Source: Glutinoglossum americanum | Lineage: Eukaryota; Ascomycota; Geoglossomycetes; Geoglossales; Geoglossaceae | NCBI GenBank assembly: GCA_020080175.1 | Contig: JAGHQL010000265.1 | Span: forward strand, 1-23,914 | DNA: 23,914 bases | Reading direction: 5' to 3' | Shown: piece after piece, positions 5,386 to 23,833 of the stretch | Position numbering within the stretch: position 1 is the stretch's first letter | Layout of the letters: every line of letters starts with the position of its first letter | Notes under the pieces: generated by a model | The model's database searches: none | Told to the model about the DNA's origin: nothing | Seen by the model: only the letters and a program-made list of their open reading frames with translations | Program-made: the position numbers and the translations under genes

Positions 5386-7267
5386 ATGCCTGTATCACCT
5401 CCCACGATCGTTGTTAGGTCCCCCCAGGCGACCCCCGAGATCACTGCTGCCAATACAGCTGGCAGTAATGTGAGCTCGCACGCTTATCAGATGTTGCTGT
5501 TTAATTCAACTCAATCTTTGGCGACATCAACCGTAGTTCTCACAATATTCAACACCATTGCCGCTTTCTTGACCATGACGATTATCATTCACGATTGTTG
5601 GAGGGCCTTCCGGGCCAAAAATCAGGGCTTTGAGTAGACCCCCTCGCATTCAATGCAACTAGAACTCTTTGCTGACCTCCACTAGGAAAAGGAAGCTATA
5701 TTTTTTGACGAATATTCACCCTGCAGAGACGTTTCCTCTCATAGTTTCGGTAGCGGTCATCATCCAGGGCTTCATATTTGCTGGGGTTGAGTCTATGGGG
5801 TTATCGAAATTTCGGGTTTCGGGGTGCACGAAGATCTCAGAAGTTGTATGGACAGGTATGTTGCCCGAGACTGCAGTCATGTCTAGTATGAAGGGGCGAA
5901 CGCTGACAGCGTTCACAACAGCAATATGGCTCGTCCCAATCACTATCAAAGTCTTTGCCGCAGAGACCGCCATACGAGCCTTGAGGAACCCGAGATTCCC
6001 GCCTCGAGGCAGAAAGACTATCCCCGCCTGTCTAGCCGCTATATTAATCCTGATTGTCGTAATGTGGGCACCGTCGAGGATTTACCCCGCGGAGGACCGC
6101 TGCATCGCGAGTCTAATGTTCTATATACGGAGCAAAGGAAAGGCTGGTGTGGTTTCTATCCTATGCATCGCCGGCGTCATCATTATCTCCCTTGTTATTA
6201 CACTTGTGCAGTTGTCTCGAAACGTTCAGATCCGCAAAGATGAGCGCATCGCAGCAAGCAGAATGGTCTATTACCTTGCTATTACCGTCGCCATTCTAGT
6301 AAGACAAGGGACCCATCAAGTGACTGGTTGTATGCTAAGTTCTCGATAGGGGTTTGCTATACCGTACTTTGCCGAGCGGGCTAGGCACAAAAACTCCAAC
6401 CTCGCGAACATGATGGCCACAGTATCCCTAAACCTCTGGGGCCTAACCAACAGCTTCCTCCACCTGTTCCTCCGCGCAAACGCCAAGAGTACAGCCATCA
6501 AGCCGTCTGCGGCATCATGGTCGAGACAGAATCGGCAGGCGATATTCAGACCTAGTGAACTCACACTCGCCCGCACCTCGACAGAGATCTCAATGGTACG
6601 AGAATCTAAATCCCAAGAGAGCGGCCAGAGTGAAACCGAGAAATCAAATCTACCCACTTTCCCACCACCGTTGAAATCACCTTCCGGGATGGGCGCCTAC
6701 GCACCATTTAGGAACGCCTGGTCGGCTAGAAATCTCATATCCCGGAAACCCACCACTCCCGAAGCCATAGCCAAGCAACCGACCCCATCCCGCCCCCGTA
6801 CACCAAGCTACTCCATCTTCCCCAAGGCGTCGCCTCCCCCACCCCCAATGCCACCCCTGCCACAACTCCGACAATCAACAACAACCCCTGACGCTCCAGC
6901 CGACGTCAACTACCATGACACCAGCGCTACAACAGGTATCGCAATCACCTACGACGACCTCACACCCCCTCCCCGCACCGCTCATAGCCGTGGCTCTTCC
7001 GCTAGCTCTGCAACGGTCCAAATCGGCCTTCGCATCTCCAACGCCATCGCAATGGGCTTAAACTCAACCTTAAGTACTACTATCTTCCCGGAGCCAGCTC
7101 CCATCCCCGCGCCACTGCGCGTTCCAGGGGCGCAGAAGATGTTGCCACCAACACCGAGAGGGGAGAAGAGGTCACTTTTGAGGTTGCCGGAGGCGGCGGT
7201 TATGACAAAGAGTGTGGGGGTCAGGGAACAGGCCCGGGCGAGCAGGCCGGGTGGGATGTGGATATGA
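5386..7267 (+). CDS. Seven-helix GPCR-like integral membrane protein
   Basis: Coding exons are 5386-5633, 5686-5855, 5922-6298 and 6350-7267: 1713 bases, 570 residues. The three introns (52, 66 and 51 bp) have GTAGAC, GTATGT and GTAAGA donors, TAG/CAG acceptors and CTGAC or CTAAG branch sites, and all phases agree. The short N-terminus has an N-glycosylation-like NST and is followed by seven hydrophobic segments. These lie at about 5509-5580, 5725-5790, 5845-5960 (WTAIWLVPI across intron 2), 6020-6075, 6155-6215, 6265-6365 (across intron 3) and 6395-6470. A roughly 250-residue tail follows, rich in Ser, Pro and Arg with a PPPPPMPPLP stretch; it is probably cytosolic. The layout fits a fungal seven-transmembrane receptor of unknown ligand. 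I see no CFEM cysteine domain, so a classic CFEM-type Pth11 is unlikely. A non-receptor membrane protein cannot be excluded. Confidence 0.8.
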
Positions 7268-11411: not shown

Positions 11412-12500
11412 ATGTGAAAGGGAGCTTAGAGTGTAAGTAAGCGGGTATTAGCTCTGGCGTTAGTGGTATCATAGGTATTGGCACTCCGGTGTGAAGATCT
11501 GTGTAGGTAATCGAGCCAGTGATATTTCTAAAGGCGTGACCGGGTCAGTCGACCTCATAGGTCGAGCAGAGCTTAGTCAGCCCCACGGGCCTAAATACTA
11601 ATAATACATAGTGGATCGAGAAGGCTCAACACCGGCCTCGCCCTTACGTTATTAAGCATATTGAGGGTAGTCGAGGCGGTTGCATTTTCTAAGCTATGGT
11701 TGGGATCGTTATTTACTTGTGGTTGTAGAGGGCGGGTGGGCTGACTAAGCCTACCCGCCTATTGGAAGGCTCGATTCGAAAAGTGCAATGGCGTTAATAC
11801 TAGGTATATTTGGTATCTTACATCATCTATTTAATACAAGCCTACTCGTTTCATATGCTTTATTTCTCTCGATTAGTGACGGCTTTCCAGGCAAACCGGC
11901 GCCAGGGCTGGAATTAACTCAAAGGCAACCGCAATACCGCACACTTTGAGCTTTCGATATTGTGCGCTACGATATATCACTTCCCTCTACTGCCTCTAGC
12001 TAAATGATACCATCTGAAGGGTGGCCGGTGGCATCGTAAGGTAGTAGGAAGCAATAAAAGGGAGCAGCAAGGCTGCACGGACATACGAATGGCTACCTCT
12101 CATGGCGAGCCCTACAGAAGTATATCCCCCTTCTAGGTATCACTGCCTGCGAATGTGGAGCTCAAGGCTGATATTACGCAACCTCGGACTCCTCTAAGGT
12201 GCCTAGAAATGCCGGCTCTGACATTTTGATCCCTGGCAACAGAATCAGACGCCAGAGGAAGTCCACTTTAAGCTATGAGGCACTAGGTGCGGAATCATGT
12301 GGGGTTCGAGTAGGGTCGCTTTGTGACTGGGCCGTTCCCTCAGTAAAGTCATGGACTTAGGGACCGATACAAGACAGGGTCAGAGAGTGGGGAATATAGA
12401 AGAGTAATATATTGCCGCATTTGGCAAATATCCTAGACTATGGAAACGTTGTGTATGGATCAAACGAATACCATGGTGGCAGGTGGGGTAGTTGGTAGCA
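11412..12500. other. Stretch without a supported gene, holding a repeat copy
   Basis: No open frame or splice-linked coding signal is convincing on either strand. The stretch holds the right copy of the dispersed repeat (11653-11770) and an imperfect hairpin (11731-11759). The last few hundred bases are the probable 3' flank of the minus-strand NLR gene that ends at 12501. Confidence 0.45.
11653..11770 (+). repeat. Dispersed repeat, right copy
   Basis: Direct-oriented, diverged partner of 8715-8830. It contains an imperfect inverted repeat with 12-base arms, 11731-11742 (GGCGGGTGGGCT) and 11748-11759, separated by five bases. In the left copy the corresponding stretch has lost most of the pairing. 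Confidence 0.5.
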
Positions 12501-12509
12501 TTATAGAGG

Positions 12510-14300
12510 CTGTGCGCCTGACTCGAGTAGCTGCTGGACGATTTGGTCGCGGCCGCCGTACGAAGCTGCCTGCATCGCGTTGCCGTGGCATCCCCCTTGC
12601 GCATTGACGTCGGCCCCCTTATCGAGCAACCGATGGACGATCTGACCGTGGCCGCTGTACGAAGCTGCCTGCAGCGCGTTGCCGTAGCGTCCCCCTTGCG
12701 CATTGACGTCGGCCCCCTTATCGAGCAGAAACCGGACAATCTGGCTGTGGCCGCTGTACGAAGCTGCCTGCAGCGCGTCGCCATAGACTCCTCCTTGCGC
12801 ATTGATGTCGGCCCCCTTATCGAGCAGAAACCGGACAACCTGGCTGTGGCCGCTGTGCGAAGCTGCCTGCAGCGCGTTGCCATAGACTCCTCCTTGCGCA
12901 TTGATGTGGGCCCCCTTATCGAGCAGAAACCGGACGGCCTGGTCGTGGCCACCGTTCGAAGCCGCCTGCAGCGCGTTGCCAAAGGGGCCTCCATGCGCAT
13001 TGATGTTGGCACCCTTATCGAGTAGCAACCGGACGATTTGGTCGTGGCCGCCTTTCGAAGCCGCCTGCAGCGCGTCGCCGTGGTATTCCCCCTGCGCATT
13101 GATGTCAGCCCCTTTATCGAGCAGCAACCGTACGGTTCGCTCGTGGCCGCCGATCGAAGCCGCCTGCAGCGCGCTGCTGAAGGAGCCTCCATGCGCATTG
13201 ATGTTGGCCCCCTGATCGAGCAGCAACCGGACGATTTGGTCGTGGCCACCAGTTGAAGCCGCCTGCAGTGCGCTATCGTAGCATCCCTCTTGCGCATTGA
13301 CGTCGGCCCCTTTATCGAGCAGCTGCCGTACGATTCGCTCGTGGCCGCCGTTCGAAGCCGCCTGCAGCGCGTTGCCAAAGAAGCCTCCATGCGCATTGAC
13401 GTCGGCCCCCTCATCGAGCAACCACTGGACGATCTGGTCGTGGCCGCCGTACGAAGCTGCCTGCAGCGCGTTGCCGCGGCCTCCATGCGCACTAATGTCG
13501 GCCCCCTTATCGAGCAGCAACCGGACGATTTGGTCGTGGCCACCAGTTGAAGCCGCCCGCAGTGCGCTATCGTAGCATCCCCCTTGCGCATTGACGTCGG
13601 CCCCTTTATCGAGCAGATGCCGTACGATTCGCTCGTGGCCGCCGTTCGAAGCCGCCTGCAGCGCGTTACCGTGAAAGCCTCCATACACATTGACGTCGGC
13701 CCCCTCATCGAGTAACCACTGGAGGATCTGGTCGTGGCCGCCGTACGAAGCTGCCTGCAGCGCGTTGCCATATATGCCTCCAAACGCATTTACGTCGGCC
13801 CCCTTATCGAGCAACCACTGGACGATCTGGTCGTGGCCGCCGTGCGAAGCTGCCTGCAGCGCGTTGCCGTAGGGGCCTCCTCTATCCATATTGGTGTCGG
13901 CCCCCTTACCGAGCGGCAACCGGACGGTTTGGTCGTGGCTACCGCCTGAAGCCGCCTGCAGCGCGTCGCCGTGGCATTCCCCTTGCACATTGACATCGGC
14001 CCCTCTATCGAGCAGCTGCCGTACGGTTCGCTCGTGGCCGCCGATCGAAGCCGCCTGCAGCGCGTTGCCGCAGGAGCCTCCATGCGCATTGACGTCGGCC
14101 CCCTCATCGAGCAACCACTGAACGATCTGGTCGTGGCCGCCGTACGAAGCTAACTGCAGTGCGCTGCCGTTGCGTCCCCCTTGCGCATTGACGTCGGCCC
14201 CCTTATCGAGCAACAAACGGACGATTTGGTCATGGCCGCCGTTCGAAGCTGCCTGCAGCGCGTTGCCAAAGAAGCCTCCACGCGCATTGACGTCGGCCCC
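12510..14300 (-). repeat. Array of 18 near-identical ankyrin repeats (99-bp period)
   Basis: Consensus unit: GNALQAASxGGHDQIVRxLL followed by DKGADVNAxGGxx, 33 residues or 99 bases. All units keep the 33-residue spacing except one that is two residues shorter and one that is one longer. Variation concentrates at the two residues before the GNAL motif, the residue after AAS, the HDQ/HER pair and the residue before LL. A degenerate first unit (LSLKGAAQRLLDKG) precedes the array. High unit identity means recent homogenisation by unequal crossing over or gene conversion, as known for fungal NLR repeat domains. Assembly collapse or expansion is possible in such arrays. Confidence 0.95.
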
Positions 14301-14766
14301 CTTATCGAGCAGCCGCTGGGCCGCCCCCTTAAGACTAAGCAAGGATGTGTAATAAAGTGGTAGTGGAAAACCACTCATAGTGTTTCCGAACTGTTGTTCT
14401 TTCCATGGTTCATCCGGATCATGGATTCGAAGCCAGTTCAGAAAGCTACGACCGGAATGCTGACTGAATAATTTGTAAACGCGATCTGAGATTCTCTGAG
14501 CTTCCGCTATGGTGCCTTCAATTATCTTAGCATGTGTGAACCAGTATTCCGCCGAGTATCGAAGTAGGGGGTTATCATCGAAACATTGAATCGACAAATC
14601 GGGCTGGTCTATCTGGAGGAGGTATGAGACGCAGCATTCACAGATGTGGCTGTGCGCCAATTCGGCAGAAATGAAGAAGGCGGATGTTGATCTGCCTGAC
14701 ATTAAGTATTCCTGGGCAGAAAAATGAGCAAATCGTACCACGTCACATCGGGTCCGGGTGCCGCAA

Positions 14767-14774
14767 ATATTGAT
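14767..14774 (+). repeat. Target-site duplication, left copy (ATATTGAT)
   Basis: The eight bases ATATTGAT directly flank the left terminal repeat and recur exactly at 17251-17258. Eight to eleven bases is the usual duplication length for Mutator-like elements. Confidence 0.95.
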
Positions 14775-14887
14775 GGGTCCCGGTATGTCCACCTTGCTAT
14801 TTGGGGCGGCCACCTTGTTTCGCGCGGCCACCTTGATTTAAGCGGCCACCTTGTTTGGTGCAGCCACCTTGTTTGCGCAGCCACCTT
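14775..14887 (+). repeat. MULE terminal inverted repeat, left, with six CCACCTTG iterons
   Basis: CCACCTTG recurs at 14789, 14810, 14828, 14846 and 14864, and as CCACCTT at 14881. Spacings are 21, 18, 18, 18 and 17 bases. Spacers are partly conserved (TTT...GCGG or GCAG). Iterated terminal motifs suggest multiple transposase binding sites; that function is inferred. Confidence 0.9.
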
Positions 14888-14938
14888 ACTACCACTTTGA
14901 TTGTGTTGTTTCCATAGTTCTGTACTTAATTATATACA

Positions 14939-16972
14939 TTACTCTCTCTTGTTTCTTTCTCTCAATGCATAGGCTCTTGTTGTCGCTCGAGTCATTCCGA
15001 CCAAATCAGGCTCGAGAGTCCACAGCGGTTCAGAAGCACCCTGACTCTCAACTAGTCTTGCCAGTTCTCGATGTACTAACTCATCTTCAGAAGAGTCATG
15101 GTACTCTTGTTCATCGCTACCAGTTGGTTCTGCAGAGGGAGACTTTAGCCCTCTCTTACACTCCTTTCGTGCTCGCTTCCTAGCCCTCGTTGATGGCTTT
15201 GCCCGAGGTGCTTTCTTTTGTCTAGCTGAGGATTTTGCTGCCTGTCGTTCAAAAGAAGATGGGTCTCGAGTTGTTGAAGATAGAGGCTGACGATTTCGAG
15301 GACGTCCTTTTGTTTGTATTACAATAGGATTAAGGATAGGACGAGGAGCTGCCTGAATAAACTGTTCAGGAGGTTGTTTGAAAAACCATCGAGGATGAAA
15401 GTCATGTTGATATAGTGGTTGCCCAACCGCAAGTCGATCCTTGATGATGTGGTAGCATGGTATACCCATAGAATCAATAGAGGTTCAGTGGCATGGATGG
15501 TGTAGAGTTGGGTGGTTAAGAAGCTGCTTCTGTCCGTGTACTTGCCAGAGAGCATATGGTGTAATGTGGCCAATAAGGGCGCTAAATAGAGGAGTGCGAA
15601 AGCTTTGAGGTATGCGATTCTGAGCGGCCTCCATAGCAGCATTGTGCTCATGGTGTTGAGCAGTCAACATTAGAGAAAGCTTCTGAAGAACCCCATAAAG
15701 GTCTCCTGTAGAGACCTGTAGATATCTCTTTACCACTGAATGTGCTCCTTCCACTCGAGAAGTTTCACGATGCCCAAAGTGCAAATGCCGATCAGCCCAA
15801 CAACGAACAAATCTTTCCTTCTCCTTATCCAACCAAGTCTTAGCTAAGTATCTTAATAGTTGAGGATACTCTCGCCAACGCATTTGAAACTCAATCCACC
15901 CCCTATTGTAGTCTTCTATTGTCTCCGATGATACCAAGTGATACCATTGGTGCATAAAAGAACCTTCCTCTTCTGAATCCTTTTCATAGAGTTTAAGATC
16001 TCGTCCATAGGAAAGTACATTCTTGTTGATATGCCAACTACATAAAAGGTTATGAGATTGCGGAAATATAGAGGAGATAGCATTCATAAGACCTTGGTCT
16101 TTATCAGTAACAATAACTTCAGGAACAGTAATACTTCGAGTTTGCATTACATTATGAAGCATTCTTAATGCTGAAGTATAGTCTTCCTCTGTTTCTCCTG
16201 ATAAGAATATGAAAGCAGCAAAGAATGTTCGATGTAATCCTGTACTACCAAGAATATCAAGAAGAGGCATATGAAAGCGATTGGTTTTATATGTGCAGTC
16301 CATCAATAGAACTTCAGGGTATCGCTTCAAAAGAACAAGAGACTTTGGATGTGCGAAAAACAGTAAGGTAATATGACCATCTTGATCTAGCTGATAGTTA
16401 AACTCAAATGAATTTGTCTTTAATTCATGAAGCATAGCTTCAATTGGTGACTTTCCTTCTAGAAGTTCTGCTCTCAATTCCCAGCGTACATTATATATAT
16501 CTTGAATTGTCCAAGCTAAACCTGGATGCTCAATTGTGATAGCAGAAGCTATCTCTTTCGGAGCGACTCCTGACCTAGTCATTGCAGCTATGCGTTGTCG
16601 GATTGGAGAGGGAAACTTACGATGTTGATGATGTGCTACCGGACCACTTGGCTTATGGTTATGAGTTGCATCCATTACGGTAAGCTCCCATTGTTCTTCA
16701 TTAGCTGAAGTAACTAAGTGAGCTCGACACTTAAAAGAACAGCCAGTCTTTTAACTAACTAAGGGTTTCTTTCTTATGGCCACTCGATCTCGTGGTTTTC
16801 CACTTTTGACACAATGGATATATCGGGTACGGATAACCCCATCGCGACAACTTGTACTTCTGCCAATTGCTATCGCATATCCATGACTCCCAGCATGTTC
16901 TTGCAGGTATGCAAAAAGAGAATCATAGTCAGGAAAGACACCTTCACAAGGTGGAGCAAGGTCGAGCGACAT
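14939..16972 (-). pseudogene. MULE transposase (FAR1 zinc cluster, MULE DDE domain)
   Basis: A single minus-strand frame of 678 codons starts at the ATG 16970-16972. It is interrupted by two stops, TAA at 16748-16750 and TGA at 15485-15487, with no frameshift. The N-terminal part has a FAR1/WRKY-GCM1-like zinc cluster: HCVKSGKPRD, GCSFKCRAHL just after the first stop, and HNHKP. The catalytic core reads VLLMDCTYKTN (first Asp), VIVTDKDQGL (second Asp), CSWHINKN (Cys-His pair) and SRVEGAHSVVKRYL (Glu), the expected order for MULE transposases. After the second stop SMGIPCYHIIK continues the family's usual cysteine/histidine region. A basic, low-complexity tail follows, with an AT-hook-like GRPRNRQP and an acidic SSEDE patch. 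The TAA could come from CAA by a C-to-T change. The copy is probably not autonomous now, unless one stop belongs to an unrecognised intron. Confidence 0.9.
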
Positions 16973-17137
16973 GTTTAAGCAGCCTGGTCGGTCGGTCAGT
17001 AGGTTTTTGACAGAAGATTAATTTCAACTTTGTGTGCGCAATTGTGACTTAACTGTAGGGTTTGACTAACTACTTTGTTCTTAGTATCTACATCTATTCG
17101 TGTTGGTAGGAACACATGCATACTGCATATGCAACTA

Positions 17138-17250
17138 AAGGTGGCTGCGCAAACAAGGTGGCTGCACCAAACAAGGTGGCCGCTCAAATCAAGGTGGCCG
17201 CGCGAAACAAGGTGGTCGCCCCAAATGGCAAGGTGGACATACCGGGACCC
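17138..17250 (-). repeat. MULE terminal inverted repeat, right
   Basis: Reverse-complement partner of the left repeat, same length, with the same six iterons (here CAAGGTGG) in the same spacing. By eye 110 of 113 positions agree. Confidence 0.9.
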
Positions 17251-17258
17251 ATATTGAT
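17251..17258 (+). repeat. Target-site duplication, right copy (ATATTGAT)
   Basis: Exact direct copy of 14767-14774 adjoining the right terminal repeat. On the NLR strand it encodes part of the E-E-I-N stretch of the last exon. Confidence 0.95.
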
Positions 17259-19497
17259 TTCTTCTCTTGACAAAGAGACTAAACTGTGACAGATCCGTAG
17301 GACATTTGAAGCGTCATATAATCTCTCATCTGGATCTATAGGATTATCTCCTGGTTTCAGTATTGCAGCTTCTGCGACTTCCTGGAGAGTCAACGGGCGC
17401 GCTGAAAATGCAAGCCACTGCAAAATAGACTGCGCCTCATCAAAATCGCTCTTAGCAATGTCTGTTAATATTCGTTCGTATGTTTCGTCTAGGGTTGCTG
17501 GTAACTCTTGAAGGGCTTTCTTCACTGCGGCTACCTTTTTGCATTCTCGTAGTGTGTCGAGTTGACAGACGGCCCAACGAAACCTTCAACTATTTGGTCA
17601 GCAGGCTCTTTTGCCTCGAACACGAGAAATGGTAGAATAACTCACATGCCATGAGCTCCCTCCCCGAGCTTTGCTTCGATATTTGCTTTGAGATTGCTCG
17701 GCAGTTTTACTAGGACTGGGTCTTCTGCAAGGCGGGCCCTTACGTGCATCCTGATGTCGGCATCCACTTTTGGGCTCCGGATGGAGATCCCTCCAGCTGC
17801 CGGGATCTCTAGGGTACTACGAATATCGTGCTCATTTCGGCTTGTTGCTAGGACGTGAAGGTTTTCAAATCCGTGTTTAATCATCCGCTTTATTTGATCT
17901 AATAATTCTTGCCTCTTCGACTTCGCGGAATTCTCTGGAAATTCGTCCAGAGCATCAATAACGATGTATATCTCCTTTCCTAGGTTATCTATGACGGAGA
18001 AAAGAGTCGAAGTAAGCTCTTCGGTGGTCGGTACATGTCCGGGCGTTTTGTACCGAGCGTATATCGCCTGGACTTCTCGTGGTAACTGTATTTCTCCGGC
18101 ACAGAGTTGCCTTATCAGTGAGCGTAGAAAAATGGCCACATCTTGCTTTTCGGTGTCTCTGAAGTCAAAGTAGAAGTATGCCAACTTGTGAGTCGTATTT
18201 GCGAGACAAACTTCTTTTACAGCTTCGATAATTGTCGAACTGACGTTCAAGTTAACTGGGGAAGCAGGATTTGGTGCCTCAGATCTTCGTACCTCAGAAC
18301 CGTCTTTCCACATCCAGCTGGGTAACGGAGATTAGCCTTTGGCCCCTCAAAGAAAGTTGCTGTATATGTACACTCACGGATACCATGTAGCCACAGAAAA
18401 CCACGAGACCTCATCCAACTACCAAAGTCATCTGACTCGAGAAACCAAACTCCAGTCTCTGGCTCCCGTCTTCTTATAGCAGTATTGTGATTTGTTGACG
18501 GATCGACCAAGCTGAGCCATTCCAGTATCTTCTGTTGCTCATCGCCTAGGTGAGGTTAGCGATAGAGTAGCAGCTTTGATGGAGATCTTATGTCTACTTA
18601 GTTGACTTTGACGGACGCCTTTTACATCACCATGAATACCTATCGAAGGTTTTTAGTTATATTTGTGTCTGGAAACATGGGAAGAGACAGTGGAATAATT
18701 TACCATGGCATAATTCCTCCAAATCTTGAAAGGTAATATCTATATTTTCGACCAGCTCCAGGATCTCTGTCACATCTCCTGAGATGCTCAGTTGACCTCG
18801 ATAGATCGCAGAAACTCCTTAGTTGTCTTGGATAGGAGGTTACTAGAACAGTGAGCTTCAAAGTGGATAGTTAAGATCGAAACTCACCACCCGTCGATAG
18901 TCAAAGAAAGCTGGAATATTTGCATGCATCGATGCAGAGTGCTAATAGTTTGTAGATGTTCCTCATTTTTGAGCGGCCACACGACGCTCCGGTACCACTT
19001 CTTCCCTTCACTCCTTTCCATAAATTCCTGAAGGATTGATTTGAGCAGGTTGAGCTTGCCATGGCAAGTGTGGGTAGCAGAATACAGAACGGACGTGTTA
19101 TTAAACGAGTCGAATTTTGCGCTTTCGCTCCTCAGGAAGCGCTCTAGCTTTTCCAAAACATGAACAAGTGTGGAGAGCTCCACAGTAAGTTCGCGAGATT
19201 CCGAAGAAGCATGCTTCACGGACCCAGTGTATTTAGAAACTATCTTAGTCAGCTCCAATGCCAGACTAATTAAGCCAGCGATGCCGAACGTTAAACTCAA
19301 AGGGTCCATTCTTATGGCTGCAGGGTTCGATATATGGAATCTCTAAGCGTTCTTTAAAGCGAAGCAGAAATACCCCGGGTTACTTTGATAGACAGAGTAC
19401 CTAGGGTTGGATCACCGAAGCTAGCTTCTAACACTGCAGTGTCAACAATGTCTATCGGTGGCTGCTTGAGTCTAGTGGGAAAGCGTCAAAAAGCGCA

Positions 19498-19954: not shown

Positions 19955-20499
19955 ATGAGAACTCGGAGTGATGGTCGGAAATGGGATGGGACAATGGTAC
20001 GACTCCGTCTCGGGTTACTTCGGACTCCATATAGTCCATTAATGTTGTATATTATTGGGCCAACGTGATACCACGTGACGATGCCAATTTATTGGGAAAG
20101 GGGGTTTACCGCGAGGGTATGTATAGGGGACAGGAGAATTGCACTCTCCAAGACTAACTAGGAGATATCGTGGGTTGTTGGGAACGAGGAAATATTACAG
20201 TATAGCAAATATTAAAACATAAGCTAGATTGAACTATATTGATAGTTAGTAGTAAGCAATACTCTTTTAAGAGATTGTATATTATTTTTGATAAAAAATA
20301 TATATCCAGAGGTTGAAGTAATAATGATAAAAAGAAGTATATGACTTGATAATATATGCAATTCAATAATAATTTATATTAGAGAGAAATTTATAATATA
20401 AATAAAAGATATAATGTACTTTATTACTTCATCAAATACTTTTTTTTGCTTTTATTACTTTAAATTTAAGATGTGTTTTCTTTTGTAATAACAATATAG

Positions 20500-20894
20500 A
20501 TCTTTACTCTTGAAACTAGAATTATTCTCACAATTAAAGTAATTCAAATGATAACATGATTAACTCTTCAATATACTACAAAACAGTTTGATATTCTCTA
20601 AAGCATACTTAGTAACAGAATAGTTGAAAAAGTTTCTCTAGTCAACAAGATAAATAGTAAGTTAATTTTAACTTTAGCTGAAAAGAAAACAGTTGTTAGA
20701 TATATATTCAATCTAGATTCATAAAGATTTTTACTTTAGAAGTTTGATATAGAAGATATAGTCAACTGTTTAATCAAGAAATATAATTTACAATATGTTA
20801 GAAAGAACTAAACTGATCACTTTATCAAATTATAACTAGAGCTCCATATGCATTTTTCTCATACCTATAACTACTAAAAAACTATTATAGTAGC
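20500..20894 (+). mobile_element. pogo/Fot-type (Tc1-mariner) transposase relic, N-terminal part
   Basis: A plus-strand frame with several stops still reads like the N-terminal HTH and CENP-B-like region of fungal pogo/Fot transposases. It begins with ETRIILTIKVIQM. LTLAEKKTVVRYIFNLDS resembles the family's LT.LEE..IV.YI..LD, and KFDIEDIVNCLIKKYN and YVRKN plus TDHFIK resemble the downstream helix region. The DDE core is missing, cut off near 20894 where an LTR-like repeat starts. Heavy A/T drift points to an old, RIP-altered copy. The match is by motif order only. Confidence 0.6.
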
Positions 20895-21241
20895 TGTTGG
20901 GTAAGGGTCCAGTTGGTTAGTAAATAAGTTAAGAAAGAAAGCTAGCCTTAAGGAAGGCTGATAGAAAATAGAGGAGGCTATCCTATATATAATATACTAA
21001 TGTCAGGTCCTAGGAGGGTGCTGCAGGTGTCCGAGGTTTGGAGGAGTTGTTCGGGAAGTTGTCTATAGGTCAGGAAGTTGTTTATAAGTTTAGAAGTAAG
21101 TTCTCAAGCTTAAATAGGTGTTATAGCTTGGTAGGAGGCCCGGTAAGATATCAGAGGTAAATGGGCTAATGTAATAACTTTCGATATTAAGGCGACACGA
21201 AGGCACTCCGACGTCGAGGATTTTTGAGAAGTTCAGTAACA
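20895..21241 (+). mobile_element. Solo LTR-like remnant
   Basis: This 347-bp stretch begins TGTTGGG and ends AGTAACA, giving the TG...CA form with four-base inverted ends. It follows directly on the pogo-type relic, as if inserted in it. I see no clear matching flanking duplication and no second copy in the window, so the boundaries are tentative. The copy looks old. Confidence 0.35.
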
Positions 21242-21365
21242 GTGTAATATTGTACCTTACAGCAGTAACGATGGCTAACTACCTAACCTACATATAGATA
21301 AGACTTAGATATATAAGGACTAATAGGTTAACTCAATAGTTTGAGGATGACTATACGTCAGTCTG

Positions 21366-21603
21366 ACTTAGAATGTATGGTAGGCAGAATAGACTTGATT
21401 CTAACAGGCAGAAAATATAGAAGACTGATCACTAACCTCCAAGCAGGAGGTCAGTGGGTCATATATATATACATGACGACGAACGCATAATAGCTAGGAG
21501 ATTGCATTACATATGGATGAGATGTCATCGATGTCACATGAGCTAATTACCTGACTATGGAAGCTTAGTAGCCTTGCCGAGTAACTGACTGTAGGTCATG
21601 ATA
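21366..21603 (+). mobile_element. LTR-like repeat, copy A (old)
   Basis: Matches copy B at 23564-23833 in the same orientation. Shared stretches include CAGAATAGACTTGATTCTA, a CTGATC-TAACCTCC-type segment, and an end containing GGTCATGA. Copy A is more A/T-rich, consistent with age and RIP. The end has the form expected of an LTR terminus. No internal retroelement coding region is recognisable next to it. Confidence 0.5.
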
Positions 21604-22017
21604 CTATTAACCAGAATAGTAAAATACCAGAACATAAAGTAAGGAAATCTTGTTTAATTTCAGTCTAGACAAGAATATTAACTTTTTCTAAGAGCACAGG
21701 TGATAGCATCACTGGAGTTGTACAGAAATCTCAACAACATTCAGGGCATAAGATGAATTCAGCTAAAGCCTATCACTTTAGCTTACTAAGGAAAAATGAA
21801 AGGAAGCTTTCAATGCAAGTTTTGGAGAAGTGCAAGAAGATGATCGAGAGAGTGATGAAACAGTCTGCAACCCAGCAATTATAGAGAAAAAAAAGATATA
21901 GGAGATTGAATTATATGAGGTCACTATAGATGAGTTAAAATTAGAGCTCACGAGTAAATAGGTATTAACTTAAATACATGTATATAAAGAGACATAAATA
22001 ATGTATAAGGGATGCAG

Positions 22018-22440: not shown

Positions 22441-22880
22441 TTGTGATGAGGGCTGGGGTACGATAGGGGCTGGACTACGAATGGGGCTAGAGTATAGGGG
22501 AGTACAGGAGTGGCAGGGCTGGACCACGAGGGGAGGACTGTGAGGGGGGCTAAAGCACAATAGGGGCTGAATTATGGAGGGAGCTGGAGTACAATGGGGA
22601 CTGAATCATGGGATTAGATCACGGAAGGGGGATTGGGGCTAGAGAATGACTGGGGCTGAAGAATGATTGGGGCTGGAGCACAATGGAGTTAGATCACAAG
22701 GGAGCTAAGCACGATTGAGGCTGGAGAACGTTTGGGGCTGGAGAACGGTTGGGGCCGGAGAATAATCGGGGCTAGAGAATAATTGGGGCTGGAGAATGAT
22801 TGGGGCTGGAGAACGATTGGGGCTAGAGAACGGTTGGGGCCAGAGAATAATCAGGGCTGGAGCATGATGGGGAGCTAGAA
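22441..22880. repeat. Degenerate minisatellite, 17-bp unit
   Basis: The unit TGGGGCTGGAGAACGAT recurs head to tail. It is best kept at 22719-22868, where the 17-base spacing is regular over about nine units. Upstream units from 22441 are looser and include variants such as GGGGCTGGACTACGA and GGGGCTGAATTATGG. There is no coding potential beyond low-complexity frames. Confidence 0.85.
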
Positions 22881-23563
22881 ATGGCTTCCTCCTTCATGGC
22901 GGAGGCTGGATCACAAGGAGTGGTTGACTGAGGAGAGCCAGAAATGGCTACCTTCGAAAGCGGCCAGAGTACGATAGTGAAGAGATGCCAGAAATAGCCC
23001 CTCCCCAAAAATAGCTCGTTCGAAAATGGCTCCTTTAAGAATAGGCACTGTATCGAGACTGGAAGTCATTTCAGACCTGAAACTATGCATTCTTTTGGGG
23101 CCAGTTGCCCCTCCGTCACGCTTCAGGGCGTTCATTCTGGCTTTCATCAAAAGGCCTTGATTATCCCTCCAAAAATGACACCAACTCCAGTACTGGCTCT
23201 GACCTCCAGTTTCAGCATTCCCCTTCAAAAATGACCTCACTCTACTGTCACGAATTGCCAGTTCCGGTGCCTGGAAGGCATATTGGGTGGATTCTATTAA
23301 GACGATACTAAACTAAAGGAAGAAGAGGGGTGTGGGGTGTGAGGAAGTTTATATACATATAAGCATAACACTGTGTGGCCGCACAGTGCCGGCAAGCCGT
23401 ACTCTTAACACTGAGGCTCTCCCACCGAACACCAAGGTTTAGCCTTTAACACTATAGCTTGTAGCAGCCACACATAAGCCACACGTAGACTGCTATAGTG
23501 CCACACATTAGCTACATATAGATCGCCATAGTCGTAACACAGAGCGACTTGATGTTGGCCCAA
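22881..23563. other. Repeat-rich stretch without a gene
   Basis: Short motifs such as AAAAATGACC, CCAGAAATGGCT and CAAAAATAGCTC recur irregularly between 22881 and 23235 and make the 60-110-codon minus-strand frames there low-complexity. The stretch 23390-23540 repeats CACACATAAGCCACACGTAG-like words. Nothing resembles a host gene. Confidence 0.45.
23369..23388. repeat. Near-perfect 20-bp palindrome
   Basis: CACTGTGTGGCCGCACAGTG equals its own reverse complement except for one mismatched pair near the centre. It contains GGCC at the centre. Function unknown; it may belong to an LTR or other repeat terminus. Confidence 0.6.
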
Positions 23564-23833
23564 TTTAGAATGTAGAGTAGACAGAATAGACTTGATTCTA
23601 GTAAGCAGGAGATGTAGAAGAACTGATCGCTGACCTCCAGCGGGAGGCCAGCGAGCTACTTATATACACGACGGGCATTCAACAATAGACCAGACGTCAT
23701 AAAGCAATAAGGATGTATGCTTGCGGAATCCATATAGCCATATAGGCGAGTCGCCGTTTGCGTAACCCGAGCTAGTTACCCGGCCGCAGAGGCCTAAATG
23801 GCCTCACCGGGTAACCGACTGCGGGTCATGACA
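23564..23833 (+). mobile_element. LTR-like repeat, copy B
   Basis: Same family as 21366-21603, in the same orientation and less A/T-shifted. It ends GGTCATGACA. Its 5' limit is uncertain because similarity to copy A fades upstream of about 23560; a TGTCAC at about 23238 could be the true start. What follows (23834-23914) is G/C-rich and runs off the window. Confidence 0.5.

What the first reader, a model, noticed from the sequence alone, without database searches (positions are those of the whole stretch)
14767..17258. MULE insertion splits an NLR gene and leaves a junction that would read in frame
The element sits between the NACHT region and the ankyrin sensor. Taking the host sequence without the element and with one ATATTGAT copy gives SREEIN-ICGTRTRCDVVRF with no shift, and VVRFAHFSAQEYL follows as expected for the family. 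So the NLR was open here before insertion, and a clean loss would return it. This gives a present/absent polymorphism in a non-self recognition gene.
Basis: partly seen in the sequence, partly recalled or inferred. Interest (0 to 1): 0.75.

Follow-up and report, generated by a model that had tools for sequence, protein, structure and literature searches.

The report
Jumping gene splits fungal immune-receptor gene
A cut-and-paste transposon has landed inside a fungal immune-receptor-like gene and cut it in two; this is an ordinary kind of gene breakage that would matter only if other strains still carry the unbroken gene.

Summary
A 2,476-bp Mutator-like element (14775-17250) sits between two perfect copies of ATATTGAT (14767-14774, 17251-17258); its inverted ends match at 110 of 113 bases. 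It carries a MULE transposase frame (PF10551, 6.5e-28) with two in-frame stops. It cuts a minus-strand gene with a HeLo/SesA-like N-terminus, NACHT, a weakly matched winged helix and about 18 ankyrin repeats. Joining the flanks over one TSD copy leaves the frame unshifted.

Three corrections. (1) The insertion lies inside the winged-helix stretch, not between NACHT and sensor (sub-threshold matches). (2) The open ankyrin array does not date the insertion or prove recent function: repeat arrays of dead Podospora NLRs can stay nearly stop-free (PMC1805685). (3) The gene may have a second frame break near 18796-18791, so losing the element need not restore it (weak).

The polymorphism was not testable: no genome is held and five scans confirmed no relative. 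There is a direct precedent: Podospora nwd2, an NLR gene inactivated by a transposon in het-s strains (PMC3321046). New member of a known kind.

The parts
14775..17250 (-). Mutator-like element (MULE), 2476 bp, transposase on the minus strand, same direction as the NLR gene
14767..14774 (.). target site duplication ATATTGAT, left copy
17251..17258 (.). target site duplication ATATTGAT, right copy
14775..14887 (+). left terminal inverted repeat, 113 bp, begins GGGTCCCGGTATGTCC, with an array of 18-nt sub-repeats (GGCCACCTTGTTT core)
17138..17250 (-). right terminal inverted repeat, 113 bp, 110 of 113 identical to the left one
15488..16750 (-). main transposase reading frame (421 aa), MULE domain PF10551 at residues 147-244; D-D-E candidates at residues 151, 216 or 218, and 334 (assignment recalled, not tested)
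16754..16972 (-). N-terminal transposase stretch, from an ATG; FAR1 DNA-binding domain passes its cut-off only when read across the stop with X
   Evidence: 13.1 bits alone; 32.8 bits with X, cut-off 28.1
16751..16753 (-). in-frame TAA stop inside the transposase (in the FAR1-like domain)
15485..15487 (-). in-frame TGA stop inside the transposase, within a Cys/His stretch that looks SWIM-like by eye
18888..19309 (-). NLR exon 1 from ATG: PigL_N / SesA (HeLo-like) N-terminal domain
18704..18842 (-). NLR exon 2 (start 18842 or 18786 disputed; frame break between about 18796 and 18791 if 18842 is used)
18378..18545 (-). NLR exon 3, linker into NACHT (hand-placed borders)
18293..18317 (-). NLR exon 4, P-loop GCGKT (hand-placed borders)
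17646..18239 (-). NLR exon 5, NPHP3_N / NACHT NTPase
17259..17583 (-). NLR exon 6, 5' part: end of NACHT and first half of the winged helix; as it stands it reads into the TIR and stops at 17184-17186
12501..14766 (-). NLR exon 6, 3' part: second half of the winged helix and about 18 ankyrin repeats of 33 aa; open to a stop at 12501-12503

Best explanation
A cut-and-paste Mutator-like DNA transposon, of a kind known in filamentous ascomycetes, inserted into the last coding exon of a HeLo-like/NACHT/ankyrin NLR gene. Steps: transposase binds the repeated 18-nt motifs in the long ends (inferred), makes an 8-bp staggered cut in the winged-helix codons (inferred from the TSD), and repair duplicates ATATTGAT (the duplication is shown). 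As the gene stands, translation would read the N-terminal and NACHT parts, enter the right TIR, and stop 22 codons later at 17184-17186; the ankyrin sensor is left as an orphan frame (frames shown, expression inferred). The likely effect is loss of the receptor, or a sensorless fragment. The copy is probably non-autonomous now, because its transposase frame holds two stops. Whether the insertion is fixed or segregating is unknown.
For: 8-bp TSD and 113-bp TIRs with 3 mismatches. MULE domain 97.5 bits, with the related Transposase_mut (23.2 bits, cut-off 21) and ZSWIM1-3 RNaseH-like (57.2 bits) profiles on the same frame. FAR1 32.8 bits across the stop written as X; the same stretch also matches AFT at 30 bits. 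Joined flanks open with no frame shift, and the winged-helix match extends across the junction with a score above 9 of 9 shuffles. NACHT/NPHP3_N and ankyrin domains on either side in the same direction. Hand-placed introns with GT-AG borders rebuild an intact P-loop. Reading stops in the TIR. Fungal MULEs with long TIRs are on record: VdMULE1 has an 8-bp TSD, and VdMULE1 and 2 have 15- and 17-bp subterminal repeats (PMC3441728, passages).
Against: No second copy, empty site, transcript or relative could be examined. The winged-helix match is below Pfam's cut-off even when joined (19.0 against 27), the 99-aa joined piece gave none, and 2 of 9 shuffled joins also extended past the 5' piece. A SWIM domain was looked for and not found. 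The gene may have been dead already: possible frame break near 18796-18791.
Confidence: 0.9

Rival explanations
1. The NLR was already a pseudogene (frame break in the linker near 18796-18791) and the MULE landed in dead sequence; losing it would return nothing.
For: The best-looking intron 1 (18887-18843, GTGAGT...CTAG, 45 nt) gives DGC-NLLSKTTKEFLRSIEVN-stop, and the following coding-looking stretch is in another frame. Codon usage trained on 444 codons of this gene favours that frame for the 15 disputed codons (+2.5 against -2.5 and -6.3 nats; the printed frame labels of that script are shifted by one, the peptides are right).
Against: One acceptor of 14 tested (18786, GAG) keeps 538 codons open. 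Fifteen codons are a tiny sample. PigL_N did not extend into either version. The other exons are open, P-loop included. Order of events is unknown.
Confidence: 0.35
2. The element works as an intron: splicing in or near the TIRs removes it and the NLR is still made.
For: Of 8 donors and 5 acceptors tried, seven GT-AG pairs give in-frame fusions without stops. The outer 63 nt of the left TIR are open in the ankyrin frame.
Against: The only good donor in the TIR (GTATGT at 17242) is out of phase with all 5 acceptors tested. Donors that fit are GTCTCT, GTCAAG, GTCCAC and GTTTCG, two of them outside the element. The intron would be about 2.4-2.6 kb, whereas this gene's other introns, as placed by hand, are 45-158 nt.
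Confidence: 0.04
3. The allele segregates, and the MULE-bearing and empty alleles are kept by selection on non-self recognition, as at het-s/nwd2.
For: nwd2 carries a transposon insertion in all wild het-s isolates examined (PMC3321046 and PMC4344463, passages). Another Podospora NLR pseudogene, nwdp-1, lacks the stops in some strains (PMC12222747, passages). Ankyrin units vary at columns 7, 10, 11, 13, 20, 24 and 29, with higher dN/dS (0.79 against 0.27 elsewhere), as expected for a recognition surface.
Against: No isolate compared. dN/dS is below 1 even in the variable columns, which were picked for being variable. Most transposon insertions need no selection to explain them (general knowledge).
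Confidence: 0.12

Closest known systems
Podospora anserina nwd2 inactivated by the REPA transposon in het-s strains (PMC3321046, PMC4344463; passages seen)
   Same: A fungal NACHT NLR gene broken by a transposon, giving premature stops.
   Different: There an approximately 0.5-kb repa scar in a WD40 NLR, shown to track the het-s genotype in wild isolates; here a MULE with both ends and a damaged transposase in an ankyrin NLR, and no population data.
VdMULE1-3 of Verticillium dahliae (PMC3441728; passages seen)
   Same: PF10551 transposase; TIRs with internal direct repeats (15 and 17 bp in VdMULE1 and 2); 8-bp TSD in VdMULE1.
   Different: VdMULEs are 3.4-3.6 kb with TIRs of 73-86 bp in the paper's table and a terminal GGNAA; here 2.5 kb, 113 bp and GGGTCCC.
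Muta1 of Aedes aegypti (PMC5225508; passages seen)
   Same: Long TIRs built of a terminal imperfect palindrome plus a subterminal tandem repeat array; 8-9-bp TSD. It excises mostly precisely when an 8-bp TSD is present.
   Different: Mosquito element with 12-bp repeats in 145-bp TIRs and demonstrated activity; no sequence comparison made here.
Hop/Jittery groups of MULEs (PMC6446971; table passages seen)
   Same: These groups include fungal members, FAR1 in part of the members and SWIM in some.
   Different: No tree was built here; placement not tested.

Membership tests
Mutator-like element (MULE) | MULE transposase domain | tested here: met
   PF10551 97.5 bits, cut-off 27.6, profile 1-99 of 99
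Mutator-like element (MULE) | 8-11 bp TSD (range from PMC6446971) | tested here: met
   8-bp ATATTGAT on both sides
Mutator-like element (MULE) | terminal inverted repeats, often long | tested here: met
   113 bp, 110 identical
Mutator-like element (MULE) | N-terminal zinc-type DNA-binding domain (FAR1 or similar) | tested here: met
   PF03101 32.8 bits over cut-off 28.1 with X at the stop; 13.1 bits without the part beyond the stop
Mutator-like element (MULE), Hop/Jittery group | C-terminal SWIM finger (some members) | tested here: inconclusive
   no Pfam match with X at the stop; Cys/His pattern only by eye, and the stop falls inside it
Mutator-like element (MULE), Hop/Jittery group | groups with Hop/Jittery transposases in a tree | not tested
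   no related transposases held
Fungal NLR (STAND) gene | N-terminal effector/signalling domain | tested here: met
   PigL_N 32.2 bits over cut-off 27.2; SesA 21.8 bits below its 26.3
Fungal NLR (STAND) gene | NACHT-type NTPase with P-loop | tested here: met
   NPHP3_N 82.4 bits, NACHT 30.0 bits; GCGKT rebuilt by hand-placed introns with GT-AG borders
Fungal NLR (STAND) gene | winged helix after NACHT | tested here: inconclusive
   GPIID_WHD 16.9 bits (5' piece) and 19.0 bits (joined), cut-off 27; no hit for a 99-aa joined piece
Fungal NLR (STAND) gene | C-terminal superstructure repeats | tested here: met
   ankyrin, 18 copies of a 99-nt unit
Fungal NLR with highly conserved repeats (over 85% identity over at least 100 aa, PMC4986451) | high internal conservation of the repeats | tested here: inconclusive
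   mean pairwise identity only 69% over the 15 of 17 units that are 33 aa long, best pair 91%; but the best 100-aa self-comparison is 88% and 7 of 113,049 exceed 85%
nwd2-type transposon-null allele of an NLR | empty and filled alleles segregate | not testable with these tools
   no genome held

The most novel reading that the evidence does not exclude
The MULE-filled and empty forms segregate, and because MULEs can leave precisely, the element acts as a reversible off switch for a non-self recognition receptor: strains would regain recognition when a related active copy supplies transposase.
Probability: 0.06. Interest if true: 0.65.

Novelty: new member of a known kind. Interest (0 to 1): 0.3.

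Why it matters
If isolates with and without the element exist, this would be a further case, beside nwd2, of a transposon making a null allele of a fungal NLR, and a direct test of whether such nulls are neutral losses or balanced alleles. As it stands it is one well-defined broken copy, and a reminder that an open repeat array says little about whether an NLR is alive.

Tried and rejected
Own-genome copy number and empty paralogous sites: no genome held. Relatives of the transposase in viral contigs and in bacterial/archaeal genomes, of exon 1 in viral contigs and of the NACHT exon in both: none confirmed, though 4, 6, 77 and 14 stretches matched a short pattern. RIP as cause of the damage: indices of the two NLR halves and the MULE are not RIP-like (-0.81 to -0.32); two of the three TIR differences sit in a CpA/TpA context (contexts printed, judged by eye), too few to tell. 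Dating by open frame: with TIR divergence 3/113 the chance of no stop in 757 codons of the 3' half is about 0.33, and about 0.016 if frame-shifting indels are a tenth of substitutions; over the rough interval on 3 differences it runs from 0.80 to 0.04 without indels and from 0.44 to 0.00 with them. TIRs need not be identical at insertion, and repeat exchange can keep an array open, so no date is claimed. tRNA and Rfam scans were empty. Literature search for transposon-broken fungal NLRs: in the lists, judged by titles and abstract starts, I saw no case beyond Podospora; several listed papers that hold the words 'transposon insertion' were not opened, so this is not a claim of absence. The passages of PMC1805685 also mention a Podospora NLR pseudogene (NWDp3) preceded by a transposable-element relic. 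Passages of PMC12258605 and PMC2441463 added nothing on this point.

Full report
What was checked. The finding states that a MULE at 14767-17258 splits an NLR gene and that the flanks read in frame when joined over one TSD copy. I read the stretch, listed frames, measured repeats, computed borders and the joined frame, and scanned protein families.

The element. It runs from 14775 to 17250 (2,476 bp) between two perfect copies of ATATTGAT. Its ends are inverted over 113 bp with three differences, at positions 24, 35 and 66. Each end begins with the near-palindrome GGGTCCC and then holds an array of 18-nt units around GGCCACCTTGTTT: 8 of the 9 matches to this core in the window (up to 2 mismatches) lie in the two TIRs, against 0.7 expected in shuffles. 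The minus strand encodes a transposase: PF10551 MULE at 97.5 bits, with Transposase_mut at 23.2 and ZSWIM1-3 RNaseH-like at 57.2 bits on the same frame. A FAR1 DNA-binding domain reaches 32.8 bits when the first in-frame stop is written as X, against 13.1 bits for the stretch before the stop. Two stops, at 16751-16753 and 15485-15487, break a frame that otherwise runs from an ATG at 16972 to 14942. A SWIM finger was looked for and not found.

The gene. On the minus strand, from an ATG at 19309, hand-placed exons at 19309-18888, 18842 or 18786 to 18704, 18545-18378, 18317-18293, 18239-17646 and 17583 onward give a PigL_N/SesA-like N-terminus, a NACHT/NPHP3_N NTPase with an intact P-loop, and the start of a winged helix. 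Beyond the element, the second half of that stretch and about 18 ankyrin units follow to a stop at 12501-12503. This is a layout of fungal NLRs described in PMC4986451 (passages). The repeats average 69% identity among the 15 of 17 units of 33 aa; 7 of 113,049 self-comparisons of 100 aa exceed the 85% that paper uses for high internal conservation, best 88%, so the array is at the edge of that class.

The junction. With one TSD copy the lengths differ by 2,484 bases, a multiple of three. The minus-strand frame is open across the join as SREEIN-ICGTRTRCDVVRFAHFSAQEYL, while the two other frames contain stops. A winged-helix profile, PF22939, matches the 5' piece at positions 13-43 (16.9 bits). 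It matches the joined piece at 13-87, through the junction, with 19.0 bits, above all nine shuffled controls (14.7-17.5 bits; 2 of 9 also stretched past position 43). The gain is small and below the curated cut-off, and a shorter 99-aa joined piece gave no match. The simplest reading is that the exon was whole here and the element sits inside the winged helix.

What the insertion does. As it stands, the 5' reading frame enters the right TIR and stops at 17184-17186, so any product lacks the second half of the winged helix and the sensor. The ankyrin frame is left without the gene's own start. Splicing the element out was considered: seven of the GT-AG pairs formed from 8 donors and 5 acceptors keep the frame, but none uses the one good donor-like site (GTATGT at 17242), and the intron would be about 2.4-2.6 kb, whereas the gene's other introns as placed are 45 to 158 nt.

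First, 'a clean loss would return it'. MULEs can leave precisely: Muta1 did so in 25/29, 27/31 and 24/27 examined events in yeast when 8-bp TSDs flanked it (PMC5225508, passages). But this copy's transposase frame is broken, and the gene itself may carry another lesion. With donor 18887, 1 of 14 acceptors tested for intron 1 (18786) keeps the frame open. The better-looking 45-nt intron leads, after about 15 codons, to a frame break near 18796-18791, and codon usage mildly favours those 15 codons as coding. This is weak evidence on a short stretch; the Pfam profile of the N-terminal domain did not decide it. Second, the open sensor as a sign of recent life. In Podospora, the WD repeats of two RIP-damaged NLR pseudogenes hold no stop (NWDp2) or one stop (NWDp1), which the authors ascribe to exchange with active loci (PMC1805685, passages). 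Third, the polymorphism itself. Nothing here tests it: no genome is held, and five scans for relatives confirmed none, in collections of viral and prokaryotic DNA where a fungal locus is not expected.

What is known. The closest biological precedent is nwd2 of Podospora anserina, an NLR gene inactivated by a REPA transposon in all het-s wild isolates analysed (PMC3321046, passages; PMC4344463, passages). Another Podospora NLR pseudogene, nwdp-1, is without stop mutations in some strains (PMC12222747, passages). Fungal MULEs with repeat-bearing TIRs, one with an 8-bp TSD, are on record (PMC3441728, passages), and Muta1 has the same style of TIR (PMC5225508, passages). The element and its effect are therefore a new member of a known kind.

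Verdict. Observation confirmed; interpretation partly supported; interest modest (0.3), rising only if isolates turn out to segregate for the element.

Noticed in passing
18842-18786: Possible frame break in the NLR linker exon, independent of the MULE; of 14 acceptors tested only a GAG site keeps the gene open.
   Followed up: partly
12380-13789 (-) and 12531-13025 (+): The GC-rich ankyrin array is open in other frames too (469 aa and 164 aa), so openness of the array alone is weak evidence of selection.
   Followed up: no
12501-14300: Ankyrin units vary mainly at columns 7, 10, 11, 13, 20, 24 and 29 of the 33-aa unit, with higher dN/dS than the rest (0.79 against 0.27); the columns were picked because they vary.
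   Followed up: partly
20010-22000: AT-rich stretch (GC 0.27 and 0.37 in its two parts) with mildly RIP-like composite index (0.17 and 0.28); the substrate index (0.93 and 0.95) does not pass the usual limit.
   Followed up: no
22631-22872: Minisatellite of 17-nt units, 14.4 copies.
   Followed up: no
21349-21424 and 23546-23621: 76-nt direct repeat, 76% identical, 2197 bases apart; perhaps ends of an old element.
   Followed up: no
5663-7267 (+): Two consecutive reading frames of 228 and 305 aa without a Pfam match above its cut-off; look like a membrane protein gene by eye.
   Followed up: no
17242 and the mirror site in the left TIR: Each TIR holds a GTATGT sequence that resembles a fungal 5' splice site.
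   Followed up: partly
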